Shown: positions 10,309 to 38,885 of the stretch, one piece after another | How the letters are laid out: each line of letters opens with the position of its first letter | Numbering within the stretch: position 1 is the stretch's first letter | Source of the DNA: Pseudoxanthomonas composti | GTDB lineage: Bacteria > Pseudomonadota > Gammaproteobacteria > Xanthomonadales > Xanthomonadaceae | Direction: 5' to 3' | Assembly (NCBI RefSeq): GCF_004122095.1 | Contig: NZ_SAWZ01000014.1 | Coordinates: 1-64,000, forward strand | Length of the DNA: 64,000 nucleotides | Translations under genes and position numbers: made by a program | The notes under the pieces: model-generated | What the model was told of the DNA's origin: nothing | Seen by the model: the letters and a program-made list of their open reading frames with translations, nothing else | Databases searched by the model: none

Positions 10309-12588
10309 ATGCGATGCCCACGCTCCACCCGCTGGCTGCTGGCCGCGCTGCTGCCGCTGGCGCTGCTGTCCACCACGCAGGCCGCCACGACGCCGCTGAT
10401 CCCCGCCCCGGCCCATGCCCAGGCCGGTGAAGGACAGTTCCTGCTGGATGCGCAGGTGCGCGTGGGCGCCGGCCCGGACGCGCAGGCCGCCGCCGCGCAG
10501 TTCGTGGCGCTGCTGGCGCGCAGCGGCGGCCCGCAACTGGCGCAGGACGGCAAGACCGGCGGCAAGGACAAGCGCATCGTGTTCGTGCTGGACCGCAAGG
10601 CCGCCAGCACGCCCGAGGGCTACACCCTGGAGGTCACGCCACAGCGCGCGACCGTGCGCGCGGCCGATCCACGCGGCCTGTTCTACGGCGCCATGAGCCT
10701 GTGGCAGCTGATCCCCACGGGCGAGGCTGGCCAGCCCAGGCCGATCGCCGCGGTGAAAATCGAGGACGCGCCGCGTTTTGCCTGGCGCGGACTGATGCTG
10801 GACTCGGCGCGCCACTTCCAGCAGGTCGATGAGATCAAGGCGCTGCTCGATGCCATGGCGGTGCACAAGCTCAACACCTTCCACTGGCACCTGGTCGACG
10901 ACCAGGGCTGGCGCATGCCGGTGGACAAGTACCCCAAGCTGATCGAGGTCGGCAGCTGTCGCGTGCCCGCCGGCGATGCCGGCAAGGCCGCCGATGGCAG
11001 CCCGGCCACCTACTGCGGCTACTACACCCATGCGCAGATCCGCGAGGTGGTGGCGTATGCGGCCAAGCTGCACATCGAGGTCGTGCCGGAGATCGACATC
11101 CCCGGCCACGCCACCGCCGCCATTGCCGCCTACCCGCAGCTGGGCATGCTGGACACGCCGCTGAAGGTGGGCAACGAGTGGGGCGTGTATCCGAACCTGT
11201 TCAACGCCGACGAGCCGACGATGCAGTTCATCGAGGACGTGCTGGCGCAGGTGATCGACCTGTTTCCCGGGCGCTATGTACACGTCGGCGGCGATGAGGC
11301 GGTCAAGGACCAGTGGCAGGCCTCGCCGAAGATGCAGGCGCGCATGCGCGCGCTGGGCGTGAACAACGAGATGGAAATGCAGAGCTGGATGATCAAGCGC
11401 ATGGAGCGCTTCCTGGTCGCCCACCAGCGCCGGCTGATCGGCTGGGACGAGATCCTGGAAGGCGGCCTGCCGCCGGAGGCCACAGTGATGTCCTGGCGCG
11501 GCATCGAGGGCGGCATCGACGCGGCCCGGCAAGGCCATGACGTGGTGATGTCGCCGGTCACCCACCTGTACCTGGACTACCTGCAGACGCGCTCGCCCGA
11601 CGAGCCGCCGGGCCGGCCGGCGACGATCGACCTGGAGAAGGTCTACGGGTTCGAGCCGGTGCCGAGCGCGCTGGATGCGCAGCAGCGCACGCACATCATC
11701 GGCGTGCAGGCCAACACCTTCACCGAGCACATGCGCAGCTTCGCGCGCGTGCAGCACGCGATCTTCCCGCGCCTGGCGGCCCTGGCCGAGACCGCGTGGA
11801 GCCCGCAGGCCGACAAGGACTACGCCAGCTTCCTGGCACGCCTGCCGGCGCTGCTGGCGCACTACCGGGCGTTGGGCATCGATTACGCCGCCACGCCGTT
11901 CCAGGCGCAGTTCACCGTGCAGGGCGATGCCCGTGCGGGCAAGGCGACCGTGCAGCTGAGCGAGCCACTGGGCTACCCGCTGCGCTACACCACCGACGGC
12001 AGCGCCCCCACGGCCGCCTCACCGCTGTACAGCGCGCCGCTGGCCTTGACGTTGCCGGCCACCGTGCAGGCGCAGGTGTTTATTGAGGGGCAGGCCTTGG
12101 CACCGGCCACCTCGCGCGCGCTCAGCGCGGCCTCGCTGCGCACGCGCAGCGACGAGGAGCTGGCCATGTGCACCAACCAGCTGATGCTGCGCCTGGAGGA
12201 CGACGGCCCGCGCGAGGGGCCGCGCGAGATCTTCAACGTCGACATCTTCAACCCGTGCTGGACCTGGAAGCAGGCCGACCTGCGCCAGATCCGCAGCCTG
12301 CGCATACGCGCCGGGCGCCTGCCCTACCTGTTCCAGCTGGCCCACGACGAGTCCCATCGCGGCTTCAAGCCGGCCAGCACCGCCCACGGCGAACTGGTGG
12401 TGCGCAACGGCTGCGAGGGCCCCACGCTGGCCACCGTGCCGATGCCGGGCAAGCTCGACCCCGATGGTTTCGTCGACATCACCGTGCCGCTCAAGCGCGC
12501 CCCGGCGCAGGCGGACCTGTGCGTATGGTTCACCGGCGATACGCGGCCGGAGATGTGGGTGCTGGATCGGATGACGCTCGAGGAGTGA
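10309..12588 (+). CDS. Beta-N-acetylhexosaminidase, GH20
   Basis: 759 residues with a secretory signal peptide (about 1-25). The GH20b domain covers roughly 28-150, then the GH20 barrel with RGLMLDSARHF and the catalytic Asp-Glu pair D329-E330 in HVGGDEA. After about residue 520 comes a chitobiase C-terminal-like domain (RYTTDGSAPT) and a further beta-rich tail of about 150 residues. It releases GlcNAc from chitooligosaccharides or glycans in the periplasm or outside, feeding the adjacent uptake system. The ATG at 10309 has GGAGA 8 bp upstream and begins the signal peptide; the frame is open earlier but that part is not protein-like. Its stop codon lies inside the first copy of the GAGGAGTGAG repeat. 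Confidence 0.93.
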   Translation: MRCPRSTRWLLAALLPLALLSTTQAATTPLIPAPAHAQAGEGQFLLDAQVRVGAGPDAQAAAAQFVALLARSGGPQLAQDGKTGGKDKRIVFVLDRKAASTPEGYTLEVTPQRATVRAADPRGLFYGAMSLWQLIPTGEAGQPRPIAAVKIEDAPRFAWRGLMLDSARHFQQVDEIKALLDAMAVHKLNTFHWHLVDDQGWRMPVDKYPKLIEVGSCRVPAGDAGKAADGSPATYCGYYTHAQIREVVAYAAKLHIEVVPEIDIPGHATAAIAAYPQLGMLDTPLKVGNEWGVYPNLFNADEPTMQFIEDVLAQVIDLFPGRYVHVGGDEAVKDQWQASPKMQARMRALGVNNEMEMQSWMIKRMERFLVAHQRRLIGWDEILEGGLPPEATVMSWRGIEGGIDAARQGHDVVMSPVTHLYLDYLQTRSPDEPPGRPATIDLEKVYGFEPVPSALDAQQRTHIIGVQANTFTEHMRSFARVQHAIFPRLAALAETAWSPQADKDYASFLARLPALLAHYRALGIDYAATPFQAQFTVQGDARAGKATVQLSEPLGYPLRYTTDGSAPTAASPLYSAPLALTLPATVQAQVFIEGQALAPATSRALSAASLRTRSDEELAMCTNQLMLRLEDDGPREGPREIFNVDIFNPCWTWKQADLRQIRSLRIRAGRLPYLFQLAHDESHRGFKPASTAHGELVVRNGCEGPTLATVPMPGKLDPDGFVDITVPLKRAPAQADLCVWFTGDTRPEMWVLDRMTLEE

Positions 12589-12695
12589 GTGGCTAAGAGC
12601 GAGGAGTGAGTGGATGAAGCGAGGAGTGAGGAGTGAGCGTGGTGCAAGACGCTCACCGCTTTTCGCTCACTCCTCACTCCTCTGCGCTCACTCCT
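12580..12695. repeat. Inverted array of GAGGAGTGAG repeats between convergent genes (locus A)
   Basis: Four forward copies of GAGGAGTGAG-like units are followed by reverse copies. 12621-12639 pairs perfectly with 12664-12682 over 19 bp, leaving a 24-nt loop. The TGA stops of both the hexosaminidase (12586-12588) and the convergent VanZ-like gene (12688-12690) are formed by repeat copies. It probably acts as a bidirectional terminator, though it has no long T-run. Confidence 0.85.
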
Positions 12696-13098
12696 GCTTT
12701 TCCGGATCGAGCCTGACCAGCAGGTTCCGCAGCGGCGTCCACGCCGTGGCCAGGCCCAGCAGCACGCCCACCGTGTCGGCCAGTGCGTCCAGCGCATCGG
12801 CGCTGCGGTCGGCGGTCAGGGCGCCCTGGGCGAACTCGATCAGCACGCCCAGCATCACCAGCCAGGCACAGGCGCGCAGCAGGCCGCGGCGCGTGGCGAA
12901 CAGCTGCACCGCGGCGGCGGCCAGGACGAAATAGGCCAGCGCGTGTTCGACCTTGTCCCCGCCGTCGGGCACCTGCGGCAGGCTGGCACCCGGCAGCAGG
13001 CACACCACCACCACCGCGACATTGGCCAACAGCCACAGCGCCAGCCACAGCCGCGGATGGCCCAGCGGCTTGAGCCCGGGGATGCTCACAGCCGCCAT
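12688..13098 (-). CDS. VanZ-like membrane protein
   Basis: 136 residues with four hydrophobic segments (about 18-34, 50-66, 74-90, 108-118). The pattern GDKVEHALAYFVLAAAAVQLF resembles the KxxHxxxYF motif of the VanZ/YfkN-type small membrane proteins. The function of chromosomal VanZ-like proteins is poorly known; envelope-related roles are suggested for some. The start overlaps the end of the upstream methyltransferase gene by 13 bp, so the two are co-transcribed and coupled. Confidence 0.75.
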   Translation of the reverse strand: MAAVSIPGLKPLGHPRLWLALWLLANVAVVVVCLLPGASLPQVPDGGDKVEHALAYFVLAAAAVQLFATRRGLLRACAWLVMLGVLIEFAQGALTADRSADALDALADTVGVLLGLATAWTPLRNLLVRLDPEKQE

Positions 13099-14267
13099 GT
13101 CAGGTCCCCCACCAGGAAGGCCGGGCCGAAGTCCACGCCGCGCGAGAACCCCATCGCCTGGAAGCGCTCGCCCATCTCGCTGGGCAGGGTCAGGCGCTTG
13201 GCCTGGTTGGCAAAGCGCAGCGACAGCACCTCATCGCCACGCGCCTGCACTTCCTCCAGCCGCTGCGGCAAACCGTTGCCCAGCAGGAAACTGGCCTGGG
13301 TGCAGTAGCCGGCCAGCTCGAAGCCGGCACCCGTGCCGGCCTCGGCTAGGGCGGTGAAATCCACCGAGGCGGTCAGGTCCTGCAGGCCCGGCCAGCGGTG
13401 GAGGTCGTTGTGGGTCTGGTGCCGGTAGAAGGCACGCAGGGTGCCGCCCTCGCGTTCGGACAGGTAGTACTCGCGACGCGGATGGCCGTAATCGATGAAC
13501 AGCAGCGCGCCGGCCTGCAGCTGGCCGATCACCGCCTGCACCCAATACGGGAGCTGCGGCAGCAGCTCGGAGCGGTAGCCATCGGCGAACGGCGTTTCCA
13601 GGTAGCGCTCGACATGGCGCACGCCGGCCGCCAGCAAGGCGTCGGCCGGCCGATCGGTGGCGATGAACCGGCCCTGGCCATCCAGCGCGACGTGCTCCTC
13701 GAATACCTCGCCATCGCGCAGGGTGAAGCGCGGCGTCGGCAGCGCGTCGATGACCTCGTTGGCGAACACCACGCCCTGCCAGGCTTGCGCTGGCGGGCTG
13801 TCCAGCCATTCCACGCAGGCGAACACCGGCGGAATCAGGCCGCGGCCCAGGCGCTCGCGCTGGCGCTCGCGCAGGTCGGCCGAGGGCTCCAGGATCATGT
13901 AGCGCGCCGGCATCGCGTCCAGCTGCAGCAGGCGCTTGAGCACGGTCTCGGCGAAGGCGCCGCTACCGCCGCCGATTTCCATGAACTGCGCCTCCGGTCC
14001 CAGCTGCTGCAGCACCGGCGCCAGCGCATCGGCCACGCAGGTGGCGAACAGCGGCCCCAATTCAGGCGCGGTGACGAAGTCCCCCGCCTGCCCGAATTTG
14101 GTGGCACCGGCGCTGTAATAGCCCAGCCCGGGCGCGTACAGGCAACGCTCCATGAAGCGCGAGAACGGCATGCTGCCGCCGGAGGCGGCGATTTCTTCGC
14201 GGAGATGACGCGCCAGCGTGTCGCTATGGGCCAGCGCGGCGGCGTCTGGCGTGGGGAGTTCAGGCAT
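13086..14267 (-). CDS. MidA/NDUFAF7-family SAM-dependent methyltransferase
   Basis: 393 residues. PFSRFMERCLYAPGLGYYS (about 34-52), GDFVTAPEL (62-70) and the SAM-binding EIGGGSGAFA (97-106) are signatures of the NDUFAF7/MidA family. The mitochondrial member methylates an arginine of a complex I subunit; the bacterial target is not known to me. I chose the ATG at 14267; a TTG at 14279 adds four residues but has no better ribosome site. It overlaps the VanZ-like gene downstream. Confidence 0.88.
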   Translation of the reverse strand: MPELPTPDAAALAHSDTLARHLREEIAASGGSMPFSRFMERCLYAPGLGYYSAGATKFGQAGDFVTAPELGPLFATCVADALAPVLQQLGPEAQFMEIGGGSGAFAETVLKRLLQLDAMPARYMILEPSADLRERQRERLGRGLIPPVFACVEWLDSPPAQAWQGVVFANEVIDALPTPRFTLRDGEVFEEHVALDGQGRFIATDRPADALLAAGVRHVERYLETPFADGYRSELLPQLPYWVQAVIGQLQAGALLFIDYGHPRREYYLSEREGGTLRAFYRHQTHNDLHRWPGLQDLTASVDFTALAEAGTGAGFELAGYCTQASFLLGNGLPQRLEEVQARGDEVLSLRFANQAKRLTLPSEMGERFQAMGFSRGVDFGPAFLVGDLTWRL

Positions 14268-14351
14268 GTGACCAAACAACGGCAGATGAAACCGTCATGG
14301 TACGCGCTGCGCCCGTGATCGATCAGGGTAGCCATCCCCCGGATGCCCCCC

Positions 14352-14357
14352 TATGAT
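14352..14357 (+). promoter_or_regulatory. Candidate -10 box (TATGAT) for the Anbu gene
   Basis: TATGAT matches the -10 consensus in five of six positions and ends 28 bp before the ATG at 14386. Its presence argues that the in-frame ATG at 14353, which lies within it, is not the start codon. No clear -35 is visible. Confidence 0.45.
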
Positions 14358-14385
14358 CGGGTGGCACTACTTTCACGGCTTCGAC

Positions 14386-15219
14386 ATGACCTACTGCGTC
14401 GGCATTGAAGTGGACGAAGGCCTGATCTTCGCCGCAGACACCCGCACCAGCGCCTCGTTCGACGATGTGCGCGTGTATCGCAAGATGCACATCTTCGAGT
14501 TTCCGGGCGACCGGGTGTTCGTGATCATGTCCGCCGGCAATCTGGCCACTACCCAGCTGACGCTGTCGCGGCTCAAGCGCGACCTGGAAGATCCCGACGC
14601 CCCCCGCAGCCTGCGCAGCTTCTCGCACCTGTACGAGGTGGCTGAGTACATCGGCGAGGTGCTGGTCTCCAGCCAGGCCCGGGTCAGCGACGAGGCCCAG
14701 CAGAGCGGGGTCAGCGTGCAGTCCACCCTGATCCTGGGCGGGCAGATCGCCGGCGAGCGGCCCGGCCTGTACCTGGTCTATCCGCTGGGCAACTGCATTG
14801 CCACCTCGCCGGAAACGCCCTACCTGCAGATCGGCGAATCCAAGTACGGCAAGCCGATCCTGGACCGCATCATCCGCGCCAGCACCAGCCTGGAAGACGC
14901 CGCCCGCTGCGCACTGGTGTCGCTGGATTCGACCATCCGCTCCAATCTGTCGGTGGGCATGCCCATCGACATGGCGCTGATCAAGGCCGGCGACCTGCGC
15001 ATCACCCAGAAGATGCGGCTGGAAGCGGACACGCCGCTCTACGCCGAGATCCACGACACCTGGTCGCGCAAGCTGGAGGCGGCCGTGCACAGCCTGCCCA
15101 GCTTCCCCTGGGAGCAGGGCCGCAGCACCGAACCGGTGGTGGCCAGCGCCGGTCCCCGGGTGCCGCCGCGCCGCACCGCGCCGCGGCTTGATCCGGGCGA
15201 TGTGCAGGGCCAGCAATAA
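14386..15219 (+). CDS. Anbu proteasome-like peptidase
   Basis: 277 residues, the HslV-related Anbu (ancestral beta-subunit) family. The start at 14386 gives MTYCVGIEVDEGL, so Met removal exposes an N-terminal Thr as nucleophile. D18 in AADTRT and K33 in YRKMH complete the Ntn-hydrolase site (precursor numbering). An upstream ATG at 14353 would bury the Thr behind 11 residues, so I reject it. In other bacteria Anbu assembles into self-compartmentalised rings and is co-encoded with alpha-E, ATP-grasp and transglutaminase-like proteins. Here the first two are present on the opposite strand and the transglutaminase is absent. The C-terminal tail is proline/arginine rich. Confidence 0.9.
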   Translation: MTYCVGIEVDEGLIFAADTRTSASFDDVRVYRKMHIFEFPGDRVFVIMSAGNLATTQLTLSRLKRDLEDPDAPRSLRSFSHLYEVAEYIGEVLVSSQARVSDEAQQSGVSVQSTLILGGQIAGERPGLYLVYPLGNCIATSPETPYLQIGESKYGKPILDRIIRASTSLEDAARCALVSLDSTIRSNLSVGMPIDMALIKAGDLRITQKMRLEADTPLYAEIHDTWSRKLEAAVHSLPSFPWEQGRSTEPVVASAGPRVPPRRTAPRLDPGDVQGQQ

Positions 15220-15225
15220 CGACGC

Positions 15226-15651
15226 TCAGCGCGTGCCCTGTGCCTCGCGCAGGGCGGCAAGTTCGTCCAGGAACGCCTGCCGCTCGCGGGGCGAGATCAG
15301 CACGCTGCGCCAGCGCCCATAGTCCACCCGCAGCCGGTCCAGCGACAGCGCCGGCCCCGACATCAGGCTGCGGGTCGGGGTCACCGCGCGAATCTCGGAC
15401 AAGGCGATGCGCCAGCGGAACGGCCCGCAGCGCACCAGCAGGCGCTCGGCGGTGAGCTGGTAGCGCGTATCCAGCAGCAGCCACAGCGGCAGGACCAGCG
15501 CAGGCAGCACGCCCAGAAACGTCGCCAGACCGCCCGCTGAAGGGCCATGCAGCCAACCCCAGGCCACCGTGCCGGCCGAGAGCATCAGCGGCAGCGCCAG
15601 GCAGCAGGCGATGAAGCCATCCACCGCGGACACGTAGGGACGGGATTGCAT
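15226..15651 (-). CDS. Small membrane protein with bacterial PH-like domain
   Basis: 141 residues: two hydrophobic segments (about 11-32 and 41-60) followed by a beta-rich region LTAERLLVRCGPFRWRIALSEI typical of bPH_6 / YyaB-like PH domains. Function unknown. It is separated from alpha-E by 30 bp on the same strand and ends 6 bp from the convergent Anbu stop, so it occupies the position where the transglutaminase of Anbu operons might be expected; this may be coincidence. Confidence 0.72.
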   Translation of the reverse strand: MQSRPYVSAVDGFIACCLALPLMLSAGTVAWGWLHGPSAGGLATFLGVLPALVLPLWLLLDTRYQLTAERLLVRCGPFRWRIALSEIRAVTPTRSLMSGPALSLDRLRVDYGRWRSVLISPRERQAFLDELAALREAQGTR

Positions 15652-15681
15652 GGGCCACCTCCTGTGGCGGGCCTGCGGCCC

Positions 15682-16623
15682 TCAGCTGTAGAAATAGCCC
15701 TGCACGATGGCGTTGTGCAGATCGCCCAGCTGCACCTGCACCTCGTCCATGAACTTGGCCGGGTTGTGCGCGGCCAGCCAGGCCGGGTCGGCGTTGCGGG
15801 TAATGCCGACCACGCGGTTGAAGTGGCGGTCCACCGCCGGGCGCGGCGGCATGCCCGGCAGCACGCGCTGGGCGCGCGAGAGGCAGAACACCACGCTGCG
15901 CGGGAAGTCGCCGTTCTGCAGCAGGAAGCGCAGCGCATGCTCGCCGGTGACCCGCTGGCGCACGTTGCGCCGGTACATCTGGTAGGCGGCCAGCGAGCGC
16001 AGCACCGCCATCCACTGCATGTTGCTGAAGGCCTCGCGGTCTTCTTCCTGGCGCGGGGTGATCAGCCCGGAGGCGCCGGCATCGATGATGCGCGTGGTCA
16101 TGTCGGCCTGTTCGATGGCCGTGCCCAGGCGCATGAAGTTGAAGCCGATGTCGCGGCTCACGTTCGCCGTCAGCAGGCCGGAGACCTTCAGGCAGCCGTC
16201 GGCGATGCGGCTGATGAACTCGATGCGGTAGCGCCGGGTGATGGCGCGCTCGCCGTTACCCTCGATGTACAGGTGCAGGTCGTTGACCGCCTCCCACACT
16301 TCCTGCGGCAGGCTGTCGCGGATACCGCGCAGGATCTCGCGCGCGCCATCCACCGAGCTGCGCAACGAGGATGGGTTGAGCGGGTCCAGCAACAGGAAGC
16401 GCGAGACCTCCGCATCGCCCACATCGCCGCCTGCATCCGGATGCAGGCTCTCGAAGACCTCGCCGGCGCCCACCGTGTCGATCATCGGCCGCCAGGTGAA
16501 GCGCACCGAGCGCGGCAGGTCCAGCTGCAGCTGGCTGCCCACGCCGACCAGGCGCGCGGTGTTCTCGGCGCGGCGGATGTAGCGGCTGAACCAATACAGG
16601 TTGTCTGCGACGCGGGAGAGCAT
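15682..16623 (-). CDS. Alpha-E domain protein (Anbu-associated)
   Basis: 313 residues, almost wholly alpha-helical. The N-terminus MLSRVADNLYWFSRYIRRAENTARL is a hallmark of the alpha-E (DUF403) family. Alpha-E proteins are encoded beside circularly permuted ATP-grasp enzymes and Anbu in many proteobacteria and are thought to act with them in making or processing a peptide, but the product is not known. Its ATG shares one base with the stop of the ATP-grasp gene (TGATG), indicating coupling. Confidence 0.92.
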   Translation of the reverse strand: MLSRVADNLYWFSRYIRRAENTARLVGVGSQLQLDLPRSVRFTWRPMIDTVGAGEVFESLHPDAGGDVGDAEVSRFLLLDPLNPSSLRSSVDGAREILRGIRDSLPQEVWEAVNDLHLYIEGNGERAITRRYRIEFISRIADGCLKVSGLLTANVSRDIGFNFMRLGTAIEQADMTTRIIDAGASGLITPRQEEDREAFSNMQWMAVLRSLAAYQMYRRNVRQRVTGEHALRFLLQNGDFPRSVVFCLSRAQRVLPGMPPRPAVDRHFNRVVGITRNADPAWLAAHNPAKFMDEVQVQLGDLHNAIVQGYFYS

Positions 16624-18074
16624 CAGAGACCCTCCTCATCGTCCAGGTCCACCACCCAGGTGTCCTTGGCGCCGCCGCCCTGGGAGGAGTTGACCACCAG
16701 CGAGCCGGCGGTCATGGCCACGCGGGTCAGCCCGCCGGTGGTCACGTAGGTGTCCTCGCGCGAGAGGATGAACGGGCGCAGGTCCAGGTGCCGCGGCGCC
16801 GGGCCGTCGTCGGTGACGATCGGCGCGGTGGACAGGTTGAGTGTGGGCTGGGCCATGTAGTTGCGCGGGTTGGCCTGGATCAGCTCACGGAACTTCTCCT
16901 GCTCGGCCTTGGTCGAGCGCGGGCCGATCAGCATGCCGTAGCCGCCGGACTCGTTGGCCGGCTTCACCACCAGCTGGTCGATGTGCTCCAGCACGTACTT
17001 GCGGTCCTTGTCGTCGTGGCACAGGTAGCTGGGCACGTTGGGCAGGATCGGCTCCTCGCCCAGGTAGTAGCGGATCATCTTGGGCACGTAGGCGAACACC
17101 ACCTTGTCGTCGGCCACGCCCGCGCCCGGCGCGTTGGCCAGCGCCACCTTGCCGGCGCGCCAGCTGCGGATCAGGCCCGGCACGCCCAGCACCGAATCGG
17201 GGTGGAACACTTCCGGATCGATGAACAGGTCGTCCACGCGGCGATAGATCACATCCACGCGCTGCGGGCCATAGACCGTGCGCATGTAGGTGCAGTCGTC
17301 CTCGGCCACGAACAGGTCCGAGCCTTCCACCAGCTCGATGCCCATGGCCTGGGCCAGGTAGGCATGCTCGAAATAAGCGCTATTGAACACGCCCGGCGTC
17401 AGCAGCGCGATCACCGGCGCATCGCCCGGGCGCGGCGACAGCGCGGCCAGGGTGTCGTAGAGCTGGCTTGGGTATTCGTCCACCGGCAGGATCGAGCTGG
17501 TCTCGAACAGCTCGGGAAACACGCGCTTGGCGACCATGCGGTTCTCCAGCATGTAGCTCACGCCGGAGGGGATGCGCAGGTTGTCTTCCAGCGCGTACAG
17601 CGTGCCGTCGCCATCGCGCACCAGGTCCGAGCCGCAGATATGCGCCCACACGCCCAGCGGTGGTTTCACGCCCACGCACTGCTGGCGAAAGTTCACCGAC
17701 TCCTCCAGCAGCATCGCCGGGAAGATGCGGTCCTTGACGATGCGCTGCTCGCCGTAGATGTCGCCGATGAACAGGTTCAGCGCCTGCATGCGCTGCTTCA
17801 GGCCGGCCTCGGTGACCTCCCACTCCTTGCGGGGGATCACCCGCGGGATCAGGTCGAACGGCAGCGTGCGGTCCACGTTGCGGCCGTCGGAGTACACGGT
17901 GAAGGTGATGCCCATGACCCGGGCGATGACGTCTGCGGCAAGCTGGCGTTCGGCCAGTTCGCGGCCGGACAGGCCGGCGAGGTACTCCACCAGGCGGCGC
18001 GCGGCGGGGCGTGGCCGGCCATCGGCCTGGATCAGCTCGTCATACGTGGAAGTCCGATACTTCTCCCAGTCCAT
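16623..18074 (-). CDS. Circularly permuted type-2 ATP-grasp protein (Anbu-associated)
   Basis: 483 residues. Family motifs include VKPPLGVWAHICGSDLVRDGDG, YALEDNLRIPSGVSYMLENR and the late VVKPANESGGYGM and GLTRVAM segments. The permuted ATP-grasp fold suggests a carboxylate-amine ligase, possibly peptide bond forming. The ATG at 18074 starts at MDWEKYRTSTYDEL, which aligns with the family N-terminus; upstream codons in frame are not conserved-looking. First gene of the leftward trio with alpha-E and the PH-like gene, opposed to Anbu. Confidence 0.92.
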   Translation of the reverse strand: MDWEKYRTSTYDELIQADGRPRPAARRLVEYLAGLSGRELAERQLAADVIARVMGITFTVYSDGRNVDRTLPFDLIPRVIPRKEWEVTEAGLKQRMQALNLFIGDIYGEQRIVKDRIFPAMLLEESVNFRQQCVGVKPPLGVWAHICGSDLVRDGDGTLYALEDNLRIPSGVSYMLENRMVAKRVFPELFETSSILPVDEYPSQLYDTLAALSPRPGDAPVIALLTPGVFNSAYFEHAYLAQAMGIELVEGSDLFVAEDDCTYMRTVYGPQRVDVIYRRVDDLFIDPEVFHPDSVLGVPGLIRSWRAGKVALANAPGAGVADDKVVFAYVPKMIRYYLGEEPILPNVPSYLCHDDKDRKYVLEHIDQLVVKPANESGGYGMLIGPRSTKAEQEKFRELIQANPRNYMAQPTLNLSTAPIVTDDGPAPRHLDLRPFILSREDTYVTTGGLTRVAMTAGSLVVNSSQGGGAKDTWVVDLDDEEGL

Positions 18075-18296
18075 TCGCTCCGTTCCGGTGCCGTGCGCGC
18101 CACCGGGCCGTGCCGCTGCAGGTGGATCGAACATGCCCGCCGGGGCCGCAAGCGTCAAGCGTTTCTGCGATGGTCGACACATCGCGGCGCTGGCCGCGGC
18201 ACCGGCCCGGCATCTACCGAGGCCGGCGCCGCGCATCGGACGCCCACACGTGGCGCACTACAATCCCGCGCTCACAGTCCTGATGCGGGTCGACCG

Positions 18297-19040
18297 ATGA
18301 CGCCACACGCCCCTCCTGTCGCCCTGGTCACCGGCGCGGCCCGCCGCATCGGCGCGGAGATCGCCCGCGCCCTGCATGCCGATGGCTACCGGGTGGTCCT
18401 GCACTACCGCGGCTCGCAACAGGCCGCGCAGGCCCTGCAGGCCGAACTGGAGGCCGCACGGGCGGACAGCACGCTACTGGTGCAGGCCGACCTGGCGCAG
18501 CTGGATGCGCTCGCTGCGATGGTCCAGGCCACGATGGCGCGCTTCGGCCGGCTGGATGCGTTGGTCAACAACGCCTCGGCCTACTACGCCACGCCGGTAG
18601 GCCAGGCCACGGCCGAGCACTGGGACGACCTGTTCGCCTCCAACGCGCGTGGGCCATTCTTTCTTTCGCAGGCGGCCGCGCCGCACCTGCGCGCCAGCGG
18701 CGGGGCCATCGTCAACCTGGCCGACATCTACGCCGAGCGCCCCCTGCCGCAGCACACCGTCTACTGCATGGCCAAGGCCGCCCTGGTGATGATGACGCGC
18801 TCGCTGGCGCGCGAACTGGCGCCACAGGTGCGCGTCAACGCCATCGCCCCTGGCAACATCCTGTGGTCGGACAACCCGGTCAAGGCCGACACCGAGGCCA
18901 TGCTGCACGAGCGCGTGGCCCTGCAACGCCAGGGCAGCCCCCAGGCTATCGTTTCGACCGTGCGCTGGCTGCTGACCGGCAACGACTATGTCACCGGGCA
19001 GGTAGTGGCGGTGGATGGGGGGCGGCTGTTGTATGTCTAG
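18297..19040 (+). CDS. Pteridine reductase (SDR family, PTR1/FolM-like)
   Basis: 247 residues. The NADPH-binding motif is TGAARRIG (about 13-20), with Arg where classical SDRs have Gly, which is typical of pteridine reductases. NNAS and the YxxxK pair in VYCMAKAAL are the remaining SDR active-site landmarks, and VAVDGG is near the C-terminus. The enzyme would reduce dihydropterins or dihydrobiopterin/folate with NADPH. Convergent with folK and folB, which supports the pterin assignment. Confidence 0.88.
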   Translation: MTPHAPPVALVTGAARRIGAEIARALHADGYRVVLHYRGSQQAAQALQAELEAARADSTLLVQADLAQLDALAAMVQATMARFGRLDALVNNASAYYATPVGQATAEHWDDLFASNARGPFFLSQAAAPHLRASGGAIVNLADIYAERPLPQHTVYCMAKAALVMMTRSLARELAPQVRVNAIAPGNILWSDNPVKADTEAMLHERVALQRQGSPQAIVSTVRWLLTGNDYVTGQVVAVDGGRLLYV

Positions 19041-19182
19041 TGAGGAACGAGTGGAGAGGAACGAGGAACGAGTGCTAGAGGCAGGAACGAGTGAGAAGGA
19101 ACGAGAAACGAGTGTCCGCCGCCACGGCGGCGTCTGCCTTGCTTTCACTCGTTCCTCGTTTCTCGTTTCTCGTTTCTAGCTT
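19038..19182. repeat. Inverted array of GAGGAACGAG/GAGAAACGAG repeats between convergent genes (locus B)
   Basis: Forward GAGGAACGAG/GAGAAACGAG copies (about 19041-19115) are followed by a short GC hairpin and reverse copies (about 19145-19178). It fills the whole space between the pteridine reductase stop and the folK stop. The reverse half starts GCTTTCACTCGTTCCTCG, identical to locus C at 31153, so the two arrays are related rather than chance low complexity. Confidence 0.85.
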
Positions 19183-19602
19183 CTAGCGCCTCACCACGCG
19201 CCCCACCAACTCCCGGAACAACGCGTGCTCCAGCTTGCCGGCGTTCTCCCACAGCATCCGGCCCTGGGCGTCGCATTCGCCGACCAGGTCGATGTCGATG
19301 GCGCAGGCGCCTTCGCCCTCGCCGCGGCCCAGCCGCTGCTCCAGCGTCTTGAGCCAGGCGCCGAAGGCCTCGCGCGGCAGGCTGGAGGCGAACAGCAGGG
19401 CCTGGTTGACGTAGCGGTCGCCGTCGCCGGGCACCACGCTGTCGGCGTGCACCACGCCCGAGCGCGCCAGCACCTTGCCGCGCTGCTTGAGCAGGTCGCG
19501 CGCGCGTCGCAGCTGCTGCTCGCGGCGGGACTCGCCCGCCTCGGCCACCGGCGAGCTCGCGCTGCCCAGCAGCAGGATGTAGCGATAGGTTTCGGTGCTC
19601 AT
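19183..19602 (-). CDS. folK: HPPK-like hydroxymethyldihydropterin pyrophosphokinase
   Basis: 139 residues. The N-terminal ILLLGSAS, the RYVNQALLFAS strand and the AIDIDLV motif match the HPPK fold (family consensus DLDLL), and the spacing fits a short, divergent FolK. It would transfer pyrophosphate from ATP to 6-hydroxymethyldihydropterin in folate synthesis. It is coupled to folB by a 4-bp ATGA overlap, giving the order tsaD-folB-folK. A second canonical folK elsewhere in the genome is possible because this one is diverged. Confidence 0.78.
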   Translation of the reverse strand: MSTETYRYILLLGSASSPVAEAGESRREQQLRRARDLLKQRGKVLARSGVVHADSVVPGDGDRYVNQALLFASSLPREAFGAWLKTLEQRLGRGEGEGACAIDIDLVGECDAQGRMLWENAGKLEHALFRELVGRVVRR

Positions 19603-19985
19603 GCGCGCTCCCGCTGCCGCGTGATCTGCACGCCCACGCCGCCTCGGGCGGCGGGCACGGCATGGGGTTTGGTGACACGCAGGGCAATGGCGTGCATCGG
19701 AAATTCGGCCAGCAGCTGCGCGGCGATGTGCTCGGCCAGCGCCTCCACCAACTGGTACTGCGATTGCGCGCACAGCACGGCGATGCGCTCGGACACGGCC
19801 GCGTAGTCGATGGTGTCGCCCAGCGCGTCGCTGGCGCCGGCAGGGCGGTTGTCCTTGGCCATGCGTACATCGAAACGCAGCGGCTGCGGCGCACCGCGCT
19901 CGAAGTCGTAGACGCCGATCAGCGCCTGCACCTGCAGGTCGTCGATGAAGATCTCATCGCTACCCTGGAAAGGATCGACGCTCAT
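19599..19985 (-). CDS. folB: Dihydroneopterin aldolase
   Basis: 128 residues, the normal size. [20 protein letters not shown] is the family N-terminal signature (IGV.. E), and VEALAEHIA holds the conserved active-site Glu/His region. It cleaves dihydroneopterin to 6-hydroxymethyldihydropterin, the folK substrate. The start overlaps the tsaD stop (ATGA) and the stop overlaps the folK start (ATGA). Confidence 0.92.
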
Positions 19986-21016: not shown

Positions 21017-21061
21017 GACGTGCAGGATGGGGCCAGATGGCCGCCGATGCCAGTGGCGGGC

Positions 21062-21090
21062 TTGCGCGGGGCCGTGCGCGCCGCTATAGT
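21062..21090 (+). promoter_or_regulatory. Promoter for rpsU
   Basis: TTGCGC (21062-21067) and TATAGT (21085-21090) are separated by exactly 17 bp, a good sigma-70 match. The -10 ends 48 bp before the rpsU start codon. Confidence 0.65.
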
Positions 21091-21138
21091 GCGCGGCTCA
21101 CCGGGTTTGTGCCCGGTCATTTGTGTCCCGGAGATTCC

Positions 21139-21354
21139 ATGCCCAGCGTCAAAGTCCGCGAAAACGAGCCTTTTGAATTTGCGCTCCGCCGCTTCAAGCG
21201 CACCTGCGAGAAGGCCGGCGTGTTGGCCGAAACCCGTAAGCGCGAGTTCTACGAGAAGCCGACCCAGGAGCGCAAGCGCAAGGCTGCCGCCGCGGTCAAG
21301 CGCCAGATGCGTCGCTCCTCGCGCGACGTCACCAAGCGCCAGCGCCTGTACTGA
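21139..21354 (+). CDS. rpsU: 30S ribosomal protein S21
   Basis: 71 residues, highly basic, with the family core [20 protein letters not shown] and an Arg/Lys-rich tail. S21 binds the 30S platform near the 16S 3' end and aids initiation. GGAG lies 5 bp before the ATG at 21139. It is followed by its own terminator. Confidence 0.98.
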
Positions 21355-21420
21355 GCGACGGCACGGTGGCTGCTGGCGCGCGCCTTCATTGGGGCGATGC
21401 GCTGGTTGTTCTGCCAAAAG

Positions 21421-21450
21421 GCCGGCACGCGCAAGCGTCGCCGGCTTTTT
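21421..21450 (+). terminator. Rho-independent terminator after rpsU
   Basis: The stem GCCGGC/GCCGGC continues as ACGC/GCGT with one bulged C and a GCAA loop, followed by TTTTT at 21446-21450. It separates rpsU from yqeY and allows S21 to be made in excess of the downstream genes. Confidence 0.9.
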
Positions 21451-27224: not shown

Positions 27225-27267
27225 GGTGGGGCGAGGAGTGACTGGAGAGGAGTGAGGAGTGAGCGGA
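27222..27267. repeat. GAGGAGTGAG repeats after dnaG, forward copies only (locus D)
   Basis: Immediately after the dnaG stop (27222-27224) come GCGAGGAGTGAC, GAGAGGAGTGAG and GAGTGAGCGG, the same unit as loci A and E but without reverse copies. About 60 bp further on, TGGGAGC and GCTCCCA (roughly 27330-27360) form a short inverted pair of the REP-like family before the convergent ctaB stop. Confidence 0.75.
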
Positions 27268-28284: not shown

Positions 28285-28294
28285 CCCCGCGCCC

Positions 28295-29458: not shown

Positions 29459-29476
29459 GAGGGGGCGACCGCTAAA

Positions 29477-30046
29477 TCAAAGAAGTTTCAACAGCTTGGC
29501 CACGTCGCTGCGCAGGTCGGCGGGGTCGAACCCCGGGGCGAAGCGCATGATGACGAAGCCATTGGGATCGATGACGTAGACCGGCACGCCGGCCGGGTCG
29601 TCCACCTGCGGCAGCGCCGCGCGCAGCGCCGCATCCGGCGCCAGCACGCGCAGCGCGGCCGGGCGCGGCGCGCCGGCCGGCGGGGTGCCCAGCCACAGGA
29701 TGTGCACCTGGTCGGCGTTGTGGCCGAACAGCTGCCACACCGTGTCCAGCCGCTGGCCCAACGCCACGCAGGCGGCCTGGCACTCCGGCGGCGGTGCCAG
29801 GACGATGCGCCAGGTCTTCTGCGGCTGCTGCCAGGCATAGCGGCCACCACCGATCAGCTGCGGCGGATGCTGGCGCAGGTCCACCGGCGGGTTCAGCAGC
29901 TGGCCGTGATTGCGCATGCCGGCCGGCTGCCAGCCGGAGAAGCGCAGCAGTCCGGCCCCGGCGGCGCTGCCGAAGAACAGGACGAACAGGGCGATCAGGA
30001 TCCAGCGGCCGCGGACACGGGCCGCGTCGGTGGACGGCGGGGTCAT
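29477..30046 (-). CDS. SCO-like membrane-anchored oxidase assembly protein
   Basis: 189 residues: one N-terminal membrane helix (about 14-33) and a periplasmic thioredoxin-like domain. C89 and C93 (ECQAAC) form a CxxxC pair as in SCO copper chaperones, and VYVIDPNGFVIMRF matches the SCO beta-hairpin. I do not see the distal conserved His of canonical SCO proteins, so copper binding is uncertain. The position between SURF1 and ctaA supports a role in building the CuA or redox state of subunit II. Starts by ATGA overlap with the SURF1 stop. Confidence 0.75.
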   Translation of the reverse strand: MTPPSTDAARVRGRWILIALFVLFFGSAAGAGLLRFSGWQPAGMRNHGQLLNPPVDLRQHPPQLIGGGRYAWQQPQKTWRIVLAPPPECQAACVALGQRLDTVWQLFGHNADQVHILWLGTPPAGAPRPAALRVLAPDAALRAALPQVDDPAGVPVYVIDPNGFVIMRFAPGFDPADLRSDVAKLLKLL

Positions 30047-30789
30047 CCGCCTATTTTCGCACGCGCGGCCCGTCGGCGTCGGAACGTGAGCAGCGCGGCG
30101 GTGGCCAGCACCGCGATGGCCAGGCCGAACCACTGCACGGCATAGCCCAGGTGGCGCTCCGGCGGCAGGGTGTTGGGCAGCACCTCGAGGTCCCGCGGAT
30201 AGCCCCAGGGCAGGGCCGGATCCAGGCGCAGCACCCGCGGCGCCAGGCCCGGCGCATGCAGCGGGCCGGCCAGCGCCTGCGGCTGCAGGCCCAGCGCCAG
30301 CAGCACGCCGTCCTGCGCGGCCGGCGCGCCGTGGCCGGCCAGCCCGGCCGCGGGCGGCGGCATCAGCAGGCCGGAGACCTCGGTCTGCACAGGCTTGGGC
30401 GGATGCGGCAGGCGGCGATCGGCCGGCAGCGGCTGCCAGCCCAGTTCCACCAGCAGCGGCGGGCCCTGCAGCGGCTGGAACACGCGGTAGATCCGCACCC
30501 CTGCGCGCCCTTCGCGCAGCTGGTTGTCCAGCAGGACCGGCGGGGCGTCGGTGAAGCGCCCGTGCCCGGCGGCCCAGTCCAGGCCGTCGGGCGCGCCGGC
30601 CAGCGACAGCGGCCCGGCCTGGCGCCTGGCCAGCACCTGCTCGGTCTTGGCCAGCAGCGCCTGCTTGTCCCGCGCGCGCTGCAGCTGCCAGTGGCCGAGC
30701 GCGCTGAAGCCGGCCGCCACCAGCAGCGCCAGCGTCCACCCCAGCCACAGCGGCATGCGCCTCACACGCGGCGTCGCCGCAGCGGCCAT
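30043..30789 (-). CDS. SURF1-family oxidase assembly protein
   Basis: 248 residues with N- and C-terminal membrane helices flanking a periplasmic domain. LGHWQLQRARDKQALL near the N-terminus (family: GxWQxxRxxxK) and GYAVQWFGLA near the C-terminus (family: YAxQWxxxA) are SURF1 signatures. It helps insert heme A into subunit I. I use the ATG at 30789; a later ATG at 30756 is also possible. Divergent from the small twin-TM gene. Confidence 0.88.
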   Translation of the reverse strand: MAAAATPRVRRMPLWLGWTLALLVAAGFSALGHWQLQRARDKQALLAKTEQVLARRQAGPLSLAGAPDGLDWAAGHGRFTDAPPVLLDNQLREGRAGVRIYRVFQPLQGPPLLVELGWQPLPADRRLPHPPKPVQTEVSGLLMPPPAAGLAGHGAPAAQDGVLLALGLQPQALAGPLHAPGLAPRVLRLDPALPWGYPRDLEVLPNTLPPERHLGYAVQWFGLAIAVLATAALLTFRRRRAARAKIGG

Positions 30790-30827
30790 AATCGGACGCT
30801 CATGGACATCGGCGTGGGAGGCGTGCG

Positions 30828-31046
30828 ATGAACGAGTCACTCAAGATCCTGCTGGTGGTCGGCTTTCTGCTGCTGATTCTGTGGAATCTCGGCGCCGGCC
30901 TGTACTACCTGCTGGTCGATCGCGGCCAGAGCAAACGCACGGTCAACGCCCTGACCTGGCGCATCGGCCTGTCGGTCGGACTGATCGTGCTGGTCGTCCT
31001 GGGCATCTGGAGCGGCGTGATCCGGCCGCATGGGGTAGGCGGTTGA
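30828..31046 (+). CDS. Twin-transmembrane protein (DUF2909-like)
   Basis: 72 residues with two membrane helices (about 6-28 and 44-64) joined by a short basic loop. Such genes recur inside proteobacterial cox operons, usually pointing against the flow of the other genes as here, and their role is unknown. A GGAGG-like stretch precedes the ATG at 30828. Its stop is followed directly by repeat locus C. Confidence 0.78.
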   Translation: MNESLKILLVVGFLLLILWNLGAGLYYLLVDRGQSKRTVNALTWRIGLSVGLIVLVVLGIWSGVIRPHGVGG

Positions 31047-31198
31047 GGGCGAGAAACGAGTGCGGAGGAACGAGTAACGAGTGGGCAAAGTGCGAGGAAC
31101 GAGTGCGGAGGAACGAGAAACGAGTCAAAGCTCGATCTTCGGCGCAGCCCCTGCTTTCACTCGTTCCTCGTTCCTCGTTTCTCGTTTCTCGTTTCTGC
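31044..31198. repeat. Inverted array of GAGGAACGAG/GAGAAACGAG repeats between convergent genes (locus C)
   Basis: From the stop of the twin-TM gene to the ctaE stop, about 150 bp hold forward copies (31050-31125), a short spacer and reverse copies (31158-31196). The reverse half shares its first 18 bases and repeat phase with locus B, about 12 kb away. Long imperfect stems can form, so both convergent transcripts could end here. Confidence 0.85.
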
Positions 31199-32077
31199 TC
31201 AAAGCACGTAAACGAACAGGAACAACGCCAGCCACACCACGTCGACGAAATGCCAATACCACGCGGCCGCTTCGAAGGCGAAGTGGTTGTCGGCGGTGAA
31301 ATGCCCGCGCAGCACGCGCAGCCACATGACCGCCAGCATGATCGTGCCGAGCAGGACGTGGGCGCCGTGAAAGCCGGTGAGCATGAAGAAGGTCGAGCCG
31401 TAGATGCCCGAGCCCAGGGTCAGGTTGAGGGCATGGTAGGCATGGATGTATTCCTCGGCCTGCAGGCACAGGAACACCACGCCCAGCGCCACGGTCAGGC
31501 CCAGCCACACCAGGATCTGACGGCGGTGGCCGGCCTTGAGGGCGTGGTGGGCCACGGTCAGGGTCATGCCCGAGGTCAGCAGGATCAGGGTGTTGATCAG
31601 CGGCAGGCCCCAGGCCGGGATGGTCTGGAAGGCGCCCCCGATCTGCGCCGGGCCGTTGGTCGGCCAGCCGGCGCTATAGCCATCCCACAGGATGGCATTG
31701 GTCATGACCCCATCGCCCTCGCCGCCCAGCCACGGCAGTGCATAGGTGCGGGTGTAGAACAGCGCGCCGAAGAAGGCGGCGAAGAACATCACCTCGGAGA
31801 AGATGAACCACACCATCCCCATGCGGAAGGACACGTCCACCTGCCGGTTGTAGTGCCCGGCGATGGACTCGCGGATGACATCGCCGAACCACATGAACAG
31901 CGTGGCCGCCAGCATCAGCAAACCGGCGAAGAACATCCAGCGCCCCCAACCGGCGTCGTTGAGCCAGCTGGCCACGCCGATGACGGTCACGAACATCGCA
32001 ATGGAGCCCACGAACGGCCATTTGCTCTGCGCGGGCACGTAGTAGACGTTGCTGTCCGGCATCTGGGTCTGTGCCAT
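31199..32077 (-). CDS. ctaE: Cytochrome c oxidase subunit III
   Basis: 292 residues with seven membrane helices. MVWFIFSEVMFFAAFFGA, EEYIHAYHALN and the C-terminal YWHFVDVVWLALFLFVY are subunit III landmarks, including the Glu that takes part in proton uptake support. Part of the aa3 terminal oxidase. Separated from ctaG by 21 bp. Confidence 0.96.
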   Translation of the reverse strand: MAQTQMPDSNVYYVPAQSKWPFVGSIAMFVTVIGVASWLNDAGWGRWMFFAGLLMLAATLFMWFGDVIRESIAGHYNRQVDVSFRMGMVWFIFSEVMFFAAFFGALFYTRTYALPWLGGEGDGVMTNAILWDGYSAGWPTNGPAQIGGAFQTIPAWGLPLINTLILLTSGMTLTVAHHALKAGHRRQILVWLGLTVALGVVFLCLQAEEYIHAYHALNLTLGSGIYGSTFFMLTGFHGAHVLLGTIMLAVMWLRVLRGHFTADNHFAFEAAAWYWHFVDVVWLALFLFVYVL

Positions 32078-38151: not shown

Positions 38152-38850
38152 ATGCCGATGTTCGTCGCCATTCCCTCCCGTCGCAAAGCGCATTGGCGCT
38201 GGGCCACGCCGCTGCTGCTGGCCTCGCTGCTGGCCGCCTACCTGTGGGCGGTGACCCGGCCGAACAACGCCTATCGCGATCTGGTGATCGCCTGGGGCGC
38301 GCTGTCCGGGGGCCTGGATTCGCCGCAGGCCTGGGCGGCCAGCCTGCACGACGGGACCGTGCTGCGGCTGTTCACCGCGCTGCTGCTGCATGCGGATTGG
38401 GCGCACCTGCTGGGCAACCTGGTGTTCCTGCTGATCTTCGGCCTGCCGGCCGAACGCAGCATGGGGCCATGGCGCTTCCTGCTGTTGTTCTTCGTCGGCG
38501 GTGCTGTGGCCAACCTGGCCGCGGTGCTGGCCATCCAGTCCCCGGACCGGGTGATCATCGGCGCCAGCGGCGCGGTGTCGGCGGTGATCGGGGCCTACCT
38601 GGCGCTGTTCCCGAATGCGCGCCTGGGCATCGTGCTGCCGCTGGGCCTGTTCCTGCAGTTCGTGAAGGCGCCGGCCTCGCTGTTGATCGGCATGTGGGCG
38701 CTGCTGCAGTTCGGCTTCGCCTACTTCGGGCCGGCGTTGGGGGCGGTGGCCTGGCCGGCGCACATCGCCGGGTTCCTGTTCGGCGTGGTGTTCGCGCTGT
38801 GGGTGCGCGCGGCGATCGCGCGGCGGCTGCGCAAGCGCAAGGGCTACTGA
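38152..38850 (+). CDS. Rhomboid-family intramembrane serine protease
   Basis: 232 residues with six membrane helices. Catalytic S139 in GASGAV and H204 in WPAHIAGFLFG; HADWAHLLGNLVFL (about 80-93) is the conserved L1/TM2 region. It cleaves membrane proteins within the bilayer; no substrate is suggested by context. An ATG six bp downstream is an equally possible start. A TACAGT -10-like box lies about 10 bp upstream, so the message may be nearly leaderless. Confidence 0.9.
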   Translation: MPMFVAIPSRRKAHWRWATPLLLASLLAAYLWAVTRPNNAYRDLVIAWGALSGGLDSPQAWAASLHDGTVLRLFTALLLHADWAHLLGNLVFLLIFGLPAERSMGPWRFLLLFFVGGAVANLAAVLAIQSPDRVIIGASGAVSAVIGAYLALFPNARLGIVLPLGLFLQFVKAPASLLIGMWALLQFGFAYFGPALGAVAWPAHIAGFLFGVVFALWVRAAIARRLRKRKGY

Positions 38851-38852
38851 TC

Positions 38853-38885
38853 GAGGAGTGAGTGGAGAGGAGTGAGGAGTGAGTG
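38853..38885. repeat. GAGGAGTGAG repeats after the rhomboid gene, forward copies only (locus E)
   Basis: Three tandem units (GAGGAGTGAG, GAGAGGAGTGAG, GAGTGAG) begin 3 bp after the rhomboid stop. The downstream gene is on the same strand, so no inverted half is present, in contrast with loci A to C. Confidence 0.8.

What the first reader, a model, noticed from the sequence alone, without database searches (positions are those of the whole stretch)
12580..38885. Dispersed GAGGAGTGAG / GAGAAACGAG repeats placed directly after stop codons
Five arrays (12580-12695, 19038-19182, 27222-27267, 31044-31198, 38853-38885) begin 0 to about 9 bp after a stop codon, in two cases supplying the stop codon itself. 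Where genes converge, three of four arrays contain both forward and reverse copies and can fold into long hairpins (19 perfect bp at locus A); before a same-strand gene only forward copies exist. Loci B and C share an identical GCTTTCACTCGTTCCTCG segment, so they have common ancestry. This looks like a lineage-specific terminator or 3'-end element that grows by unit duplication, not ordinary REP DNA.
Basis: seen in the sequence. Interest (0 to 1): 0.72.

Follow-up and report, generated by a model that had tools for sequence, protein, structure and literature searches.

The report
Paired 7-bp repeats filling gene junctions
Many short hairpin-forming 7-base repeats sit right between neighbouring genes of this bacterium, even inside tightly packed operons, and related species carry a different version of the repeat at the same junction, usually with both halves of the hairpin of the same version.

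Summary
The arrays are real and belong to a genome-wide set of period-7 repeats. 'Terminator-like 3' end element' is only partly right. The usual form is an inward-facing pair of heptad arms (often X-GAGTGNN-X-X-GAGTG, X = GAGRAAC or GAGGAGT) around a mostly locus-specific spacer. In an 846-kb sample, 34 of 51 inward pairs lie between SAME-strand genes, including likely operon partners such as rimM-trmD, era-recO and glyA-nrdR, often reaching from just after the stop to just before the ATG. The two arms share unit type in 49 of 51 pairs. Relatives have the same junctions without elements (glyA-nrdR gaps of 4-24 bp in 12 of 30) or with other unit types. T-runs before the distal arm are rare (5/34, 3/26), so most are not classic intrinsic terminators. 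Xanthomonas GGGAATC heptads (Rehm 2015, PMC4692102) follow the same placement rules; the window's units lack their G-triplets. Best reading: a new variant of that kind whose arms fold into an RNA hairpin keeping stop and next start close. Function and spreading mechanism are unproven; a neutral filler is nearly as likely.

The parts
12580..12637 (+). forward arm, GAGGAGT type; its first decamer holds the stop of the gene 10309-12588 (+)
12638..12665 (.). spacer of the convergent element at locus A
12666..12696 (-). reverse arm, GAGGAGT type; holds the stop of the gene 12688-13089 (-)
19042..19114 (+). forward arm, GAGRAAC type, 1 bp after the stop of the gene ending at 19040
19115..19147 (.). 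spacer; holds a terminator-like hairpin at 19126-19138
19148..19178 (-). reverse arm, GAGRAAC type, near the stop of the minus-strand gene at 19183
27233..27265 (+). single forward arm, GAGGAGT type, after dnaG (stop at 27224), convergent with a heme o synthase gene
31051..31126 (+). forward arm, GAGRAAC type, after the gene 30828-31046
31127..31159 (.). spacer of the element next to the cytochrome oxidase subunit III gene
31160..31197 (-). reverse arm, GAGRAAC type, after the stop of the subunit III gene 31199-32077 (-)
38853..38885 (+). single forward arm in the X-GAGTGGA-X-X-GAGTG form (X = GAGGAGT) in a tandem gap

Best explanation
These are paired heptad-repeat gene-junction elements, a variant without G triplets of the heptad repeats known from Xanthomonas. 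A complete element is two inward-facing arms of 7-bp units around a spacer (15-344 bp in the sample), lying between the stop codon of one gene and the next gene boundary: a stop in convergent gaps, a start in tandem gaps. SHOWN in the sample: placement, avoidance of divergent gaps, matching unit types in the two arms, different unit types at orthologous junctions of related species, and presence at junctions that are only 4-24 bp long in other species. INFERRED, most likely mechanism: in the mRNA the two arms pair into a long stem whose base lies near the upstream stop and the downstream start, so the added ~100 nt are folded out of the way and stop-to-start translation coupling can survive; at convergent ends the same hairpin shields or helps define mRNA 3' ends. 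Arms change length by slippage (inferred from unit counts); unit types are replaced over time by an unknown process.
For: Inward orientation in 51 of 55 adjacent opposite-strand pairs; arms share unit type in 49 of 51 pairs, permuted mean 20.7, largest of 5000 permutations 32; arms with two or more seeds in 0 of 56 divergent vs 20 of 195 other gaps in the systematic sample, P 0.009. Folds: z below -3 in 26 of 33 tandem and 10 of 11 convergent elements up to 300 nt; era-recO -74.5 kcal/mol, z -8.1, with the stem between UAG and AUG. Several tandem host pairs look like operon partners. In 35 two-armed junction elements of 5 orthologous junctions the arms' unit spectra agree (mean cosine 0.80 vs 0.35 permuted, 0 of 10000; 28 of 35 share a dominant unit); in a stricter set of 19, complementarity within a gap (median score 36) exceeds that between species at the same junction (16), P 0.0006, own partner best in 11 of 19. 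The gap left beside the element is 70 bp or less in 23 of 32 tandem junctions, against 4.9% expected for length-proportional placement. Starts within 40 bp of a distal arm more often lack an SD-like stretch: 13 of 20 vs 60 of 246, P 0.0003. Precedent for a hairpin shortening an over-long initiation spacing: T4 genes 38 and 25 (PMC3014915, passages).
Against: Within one unit type the two arms of a locus are no more alike than arms of different loci (GARAAC 19.86 vs 20.53 of 26, 99.9% of permutations at or above), which fine-tuned pairing would not predict. Mismatches between arms show no excess of G.U over A.C on the sense strand of tandem elements (49 vs 44, P 0.68; convergent, with the + strand as arbitrary reference, 32 vs 20), so selection on RNA pairing is not demonstrated. 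Pairs are not significantly more common in tandem than in convergent gaps (P 0.26). 7 of 35 two-armed elements share no dominant unit. At ribBA-ribH the distal arm stops before a stretch conserved upstream of ribH, so the hairpin does not abut that start. The SD test is confounded because the arm itself occupies the site, and rests on my own gene caller. [quoted passage not shown] I had no RNA or protein data.
Confidence: 0.42

Rival explanations
1. Neutral or selfish repeats: heptads that spread and expand by copying and slippage and survive only where they do least harm, that is after stop codons and away from promoters. The hairpin is a by-product of inverted arms and has no job.
For: Rapid turnover: GAGRAACGAG counts range from 1 to 573 among 38 same-genus genomes; junction occupancy differs between sister genomes (G016 6 bp, G027 113-bp element); arms are not fine-tuned to each other.
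Against: Neutral placement in proportion to gap length does not predict 23 of 32 elements in junctions with 70 bp or less left over, nor matching unit types in 49 of 51 pairs.
Confidence: 0.33
2. Terminator or 3'-end element: the hairpin ends transcription, in both directions at convergent genes.
For: Sense placement after stops; strong folds; one terminator-like hit inside the 19038 element; at the cytochrome oxidase subunit III gap three relatives carry heptad arms on both sides of an ordinary terminator; transcript ends were enriched at quadruplex-capable heptads in Xanthomonas (PMC4692102).
Against: 34 of 51 sampled pairs lie between same-strand genes, several likely operon partners; T-runs of 4 or more in 5/34 and 3/26; three of the four window arrays inside 12001-32000 have no terminator-like hit.
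Confidence: 0.14
3. Processing or binding site: the long RNA stem is cut by RNase III or the arms bind a protein, adjusting the relative level of the two parts of an operon, as REP elements are thought to do (recalled).
For: Long double-stranded stems; operon junctions.
Against: No processing data; host genes show no common function in the 10 pairs examined.
Confidence: 0.08
4. DNA or RNA quadruplexes, the explanation offered for Xanthomonas heptads.
For: Some loci of this genome have GGGATT or GGGACC units, which could form quadruplexes.
Against: 103 of 135 sampled arms are GAGRAAC or GAGRAGT types without G triplets and are placed alike.
Confidence: 0.03

Closest known systems
Xanthomonas GGGAATC / (GGGANTN)n heptameric repeats (Rehm et al. 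2015, PMC4692102; parts 1-5 of 8 read)
   Same: 7-bp units, mostly intergenic, preferentially 0-50 bp after a stop on the coding strand or before a start on the non-coding strand, some overlapping stops, under-represented between divergent genes, often in inverted pairs (70 cases in Xcc, 75 in Xac).
   Different: Window units GAGGAGT and GAGRAAC have no G triplet; several unit types coexist in one genome; a composite 33-bp arm recurs; both arms usually share a unit type; elements of different unit types occupy operon junctions that are tight in other species. I did not meet these points in the parts I read.
Nostoc GGGGA(T/C)T heptads (same paper)
   Same: Heptad units near gene ends; like GAGGAGT, GAGRAAC and GGGAATC they fit GRGRANY (my own loose summary).
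   Different: The paper reports few inverted pairs and more intragenic copies than in Xanthomonas.
TAACTGA direct repeats of marine Beggiatoaceae (PMC4679880, passages read)
   Same: Dispersed, mostly intergenic 7-bp repeats at gene boundaries; [quoted passage not shown]
   Different: Mostly just upstream of start codons in forward orientation; one inverted repeat reported; unrelated unit.
REP/BIME elements with RAYT transposases (PMC2817692, passages read)
   Same: Inverted units scattered between genes.
   Different: REPs have a GT(A/G)G head and a palindrome inside each unit and are tied to rayt genes; heptad units are not palindromes.
Split ribosome-binding sites with an intervening hairpin, T4 genes 25 and 38 (PMC3014915, passages read)
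   Same: A hairpin at a gene junction shortens an over-long spacing; analogy of mechanism only.
   Different: Single phage genes, short hairpins, a Shine-Dalgarno sequence upstream of the hairpin; no repeats.

Membership tests
Xanthomonas G-rich heptad repeats | tandem 7-bp units, intergenic, next to stops in sense or starts in antisense | tested here: met
Xanthomonas G-rich heptad repeats | unit of the (GGGANTN) type with at least one GGGAATC | tested here: not met
   window arms are GAGGAGT or GAGRAAC; other loci of the genome have GGGATT and GGGACC arms
Xanthomonas G-rich heptad repeats | four G triplets, quadruplex-capable | tested here: not met
   no GGG in the window units; 103 of 135 sampled arms are of such types
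Xanthomonas G-rich heptad repeats | inverted pairs; rare between divergent genes | tested here: met
   51 of 55 opposite pairs inward; 2 of 123 arms in divergent gaps, both single GGGAAT seeds; 0 of 56 divergent gaps in the systematic sample
REP/BIME with RAYT | unit with GT(A/G)G head and internal palindrome | tested here: not met
   by inspection of the arm listing; definition from PMC2817692
REP/BIME with RAYT | cognate rayt gene flanked by the repeat | tested here: not met
   one Y1_Tnp gene; no GRGRA tandem in the 3.3-kb locus around it
Intrinsic terminator | GC hairpin followed by a T-run | tested here: not met
   as a general feature: T-run of 4 or more before the distal arm in 5/34 tandem and 3/26 convergent directions; one of the four window arrays inside 12001-32000 has a terminator-like hit (19126-19138)
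MITE | homologous interior between terminal inverted repeats | tested here: not met
   of 37 spacers, one local duplicate pair, two long spacers (L068, L069) sharing a second repeat, and a few 12-16 bp matches
MITE | target-site duplication | tested here: inconclusive
   glyA-nrdR in sister genomes G016 (6 bp) and G027 (113 bp) shows no evident duplication, but gain and loss cannot be told apart
Known structured RNA family | match at the Rfam gathering score | tested here: not met
   0 matches in window 12000-40000
Split ribosome-binding site | hairpin required for downstream translation | not testable with these tools
   needs a reporter assay

The most novel reading that the evidence does not exclude
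A self-complementary repeat that is acquired precisely at gene junctions, including stop-to-start gaps of 4-24 bp inside operons, and acts as an RNA bridge: its stem holds the stop codon of the terminating ribosome next to the following start codon, so operon junctions can swap in elements of different heptad type, both arms together, without losing translational coupling. Such junction targeting would imply a dedicated, still unknown copying machinery.
Probability: 0.22. Interest if true: 0.78.

Novelty: new variant of a known kind. Interest (0 to 1): 0.56.

Why it matters
It separates the placement of these heptads from quadruplex formation, the property by which they were explained: units without G triplets follow the same rules. 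It also offers a natural experiment: the same junction (glyA-nrdR, era-recO, rimM-trmD) exists within one genus as a short gap or as a ~100-bp element of several unit types, so termination, coupling, processing and neutrality can be tested directly. How a 7-bp unit type reaches so many junctions and ends up in both arms is an open question that these genomes make testable.

Tried and rejected
Quasi-palindrome correction (one arm copied onto the other): rejected as the main process, because arms of one locus are not more alike than arms of different loci of the same unit type.

RNA-strand-specific selection: looked for a G.U over A.C excess between arms of tandem elements; none (49 vs 44).

RAYT or REP origin: one Y1_Tnp gene, no heptad tandem in its 3.3-kb locus. 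MITE: spacers mostly not homologous. Rfam: nothing at gathering score.

A copying reverse transcriptase: one RVT_1 match in the genome, a Drt2-type defence reverse transcriptase; nothing ties it to the repeats.

dnaG 3' end across named loci (46 of 80 printed): gene order differs, so it gave no orthologous empty site, but Lysobacter sp. Root690 has a GGGATTC/GGGGTTC array at the dnaG stop.

Detector limits: the element rule was strict and missed elements (for example the own hslV-hslU one); counts used come, whose '2 or more units' rule lets in weak cases (for example L249, L315). For hslV-hslU the true start codon is uncertain in many relatives, so gap lengths there are rough. Rows dropped: 8 arms in called genes and 4 at stretch edges before the placement counts, one-seed arms where '2 or more seeds' is stated (104 of 135 arms have 2 or more), and one ribH locus without ribBA (L320). 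Of 34 tandem junctions listed I examined 10 by Pfam, picked for neat elements, plus glyA-nrdR.
Full report
WHAT WAS CHECKED. The five arrays are in the window as described. With one mismatch allowed, GAGGAGTGAG occurs 13 times against 3.8 expected and GAGAAACGAG 19 times against 1.8; no shuffle of 100 reached either. The genome that holds the window (4,334,477 bases, 24 contigs) has 388 exact GAGGAGTGAG and 573 GAGRAACGAG. The backwards-read control gives 167 for the first, inflated because a GAGGAGT tandem contains that string too, and 7 for the second. The closest named dnaG sequences are from Pseudoxanthomonas (83 and 80% identity), then Xanthomonas (79-80%); the genome itself is unnamed.

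SAMPLE AND GENE CALLS. The whole genome was not available as a file. I read 20 evenly placed 20-kb stretches and 20 stretches chosen around known arrays, with the window 846 kb in all, and called genes with a home-made Markov model (678 genes, 83% of the DNA). Frequencies called systematic use the first set plus the window; other counts use the whole, partly targeted sample. Start codons are predictions.

THE FAMILY. A scan for tandem repeats of any unit finds 40 period-7 arrays, 36 of them outside called genes, against 0-8 for nine other periods. Unit types include GAGGAAC/GAGAAAC, GAGGAGT, GGGATTG/C and GGGACCG/C. With free choice of rotation and strand many fit GRGRANY, as do the published GGGAATC and GGGGAYT; that consensus is my own loose summary (13 of 43 arrays in relatives fit all seven positions). 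A recurrent arm form is X-GAGTGNN-X-X-GAGTG, often followed by AAAGC, with X = GAGGAAC or GAGGAGT.

PLACEMENT. Seeded search gives 135 arms: 65 GARAAC, 38 GARAGT, 26 with G triplets, 6 other; 8 lie in called genes, 4 at stretch edges, 2 in divergent gaps (single GGGAAT seeds), the rest in tandem or convergent gaps. Of 98 arms with two or more seeds in tandem or convergent gaps, 85 are nearer the gene on their 5' side (P 4e-14), median distance 13.5 bp against 117 bp on the other side; 61 of the 98 follow a stop in sense. Genes followed by an arm within 25 bp use TAG more (14 of 59 vs 59 of 593) and TAA less (1 of 59 vs 84 of 593) than others, as expected if arms supply stops. In the systematic sample 7 of 42 convergent, 13 of 153 tandem and 0 of 56 divergent gaps of 20 bp or more carry an arm.

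PAIRED ARMS. Of 55 adjacent opposite-strand arm pairs, 51 point inward. Of these, 34 lie in tandem gaps, 13 in convergent gaps, 2 at stretch edges and 2 in called genes; unpaired arms with two or more seeds number 11 in tandem and 9 in convergent gaps. So the rule that same-strand gaps have forward copies only does not hold outside the window. Unit type agrees in 49 of 51 pairs, against 20.7 expected and 32 at most in 5000 permutations. GARAGT pairs are relatively more often convergent than GARAAC pairs (7 of 12 vs 5 of 27, P 0.023).

OPERON JUNCTIONS. Of 34 tandem junctions listed, ten with neat elements were examined by Pfam on both sides. From their domains I read rimM-trmD, era-recO, pstB-phoU, ribBA-ribH, cysJ-cysI, argF-argG, argC-argH and hslV-hslU; two others (DUF3011 with an mtnA-like gene; a short-chain dehydrogenase with EF-P) are not familiar partners. 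glyA-nrdR was added later. That these are operons is inferred from gene names, not from RNA. In many the element spans nearly the whole gap, from a few bases after the stop to a few bases before the ATG. The gap left beside the element is 70 bp or less in 23 of 32 junctions; gaps weighted by length would give 4.9%. Distal arms take the place of the ribosome-binding region: 13 of 20 such starts have no SD-like stretch of 3 or more, against 60 of 246 other tandem starts.

RELATIVES. Each of five junctions was read in 29-30 same-genus genomes out of 38 searched. Junctions with two or more heptad units: rimM-trmD 8 of 30, hslV-hslU 9 of 30, era-recO 7 of 30, ribBA-ribH 4 of 29, glyA-nrdR 13 of 30. 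Element-free glyA-nrdR gaps are 4-24 bp in 12 of 30 genomes; the other 5 have longer gaps without heptads. Three to five unit types are seen at each junction, counting weak cases. In 35 two-armed cases the two arms' unit spectra have a mean cosine of 0.80, against 0.35 when arms are exchanged among cases (0 of 10000 permutations); 28 of 35 share a dominant unit. A stricter set of 19 gives higher 5'/3' complementarity within a gap than between species (median 36 vs 16, P 0.0006; own partner best in 11 of 19, worst of 7 in two). Sister genomes G016 and G027 (flanks 94.8% identical) have 6 bp and a 113-bp element at glyA-nrdR; which is ancestral is not settled, because five species carry an element of similar layout there, in part with alike spacers. 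At rimM-trmD G012 and G028 have similar spacers but seven and two consecutive GAGGAGTGAG seeds in the reverse arm. At the gap after the cytochrome oxidase subunit III gene, of 19 relatives' loci delivered in readable orientation (11 of 30 were not read), three (G001, G022, G036) have heptad arms on both sides of an ordinary terminator-like hairpin, and by eye at least eight have such a hairpin without heptads. The window's own element there has no run of four T before its distal arm.

COPY NUMBER IN THE GENUS. GAGRAACGAG: 573 in this genome, 278 and 269 in G037 and G036, 73 and 47 in G021 and G007, 1-24 in the other 33 of 38. GAGRAGTGAGRAGTGAG occurs in 18 of 38. In 80 named loci around dnaG, period-7 arrays number 37 against 1-3 for five other periods.

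FOLDING. Elements fold better than shuffles: median z -5.7 (convergent, n 11) and -4.7 (tandem, n 33) for those up to 300 nt; era-recO -74.5 kcal/mol, z -8.1; ribBA-ribH z -6.1; window 12580 z -6.0; window 31044 z -5.1. Repeats in inverted orientation fold by construction, so folding alone does not prove function.

RESULTS AGAINST MY READING. Within a unit type the arms of one locus are not more alike than arms of different loci; mismatches do not favour G.U pairs on the sense strand; pairing is not significantly commoner in tandem gaps; 7 of 35 elements have arms without a shared dominant unit; ribBA-ribH keeps a conserved stretch between element and start; published Xanthomonas RNA-seq finds quadruplex-capable heptads more often at transcript starts or ends than controls (PMC4692102). 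These leave a neutral or selfish filler nearly as likely as a working hairpin.

COMPARISON WITH THE LITERATURE. Rehm et al. 2015 (PMC4692102; parts 1-5 of 8 read) describe GGGAATC heptads in two Xanthomonas genomes with the same placement and many inverted pairs, and study them as G-quadruplexes. The present units cannot form a three-layer quadruplex yet are placed alike, and are the majority here (103 of 135 arms). My searches of the held library (listings only, apart from the papers named) showed no report of GAGRAAC or GAGGAGT heptads, of unit-type matching between arms, or of such elements in tight operon junctions; most subscription papers and preprints are not in that library. REP/BIME (PMC2817692, passages) and Beggiatoaceae TAACTGA repeats (PMC4679880, passages) differ as listed.

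VERDICT.

Noticed in passing
L322 1213-2577 (minus strand), own genome contig C24: A Drt2-type defence reverse transcriptase (PADLOC Drt2, E 5.6e-137), the only RVT_1 match in the genome.
   Followed up: partly
L151 1153-1866 (minus strand), own genome contig C18: One IS200-like (RAYT-type?) transposase gene. A separate REP-like repeat (GTGGGAGCGGCTTCAGCCGC and similar) lies inside two long spacers (L068, L069), and a GGGGCTGAAGCCCC repeat sits at the hslV-hslU gap of several relatives.
   Followed up: partly
G004, whole genome: GAGRAACGAG occurs 0 times forward and 12 times reverse, scattered as single copies over four contigs; an odd strand bias.
   Followed up: no
L101 11751-11834: Lysobacter sp. 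Root690 has a GGGATTC/GGGGTTC heptad array starting at the dnaG stop codon, a case of the same placement in another genus.
   Followed up: partly
L115 (Chiayiivirga flava) and L093 (Luteimonas marina): Heptad arrays of other units (CACGAAT-type, GGTGATT-type): the period is kept while the unit differs.
   Followed up: no
L156, L157 (G009, G029), gap after cytochrome oxidase subunit III: A different long inverted repeat (GAGGGTACGGCGAAG type) fills the same gap.
   Followed up: no
window 104-152: CAACAG hexamer repeated about 8 times.
   Followed up: no
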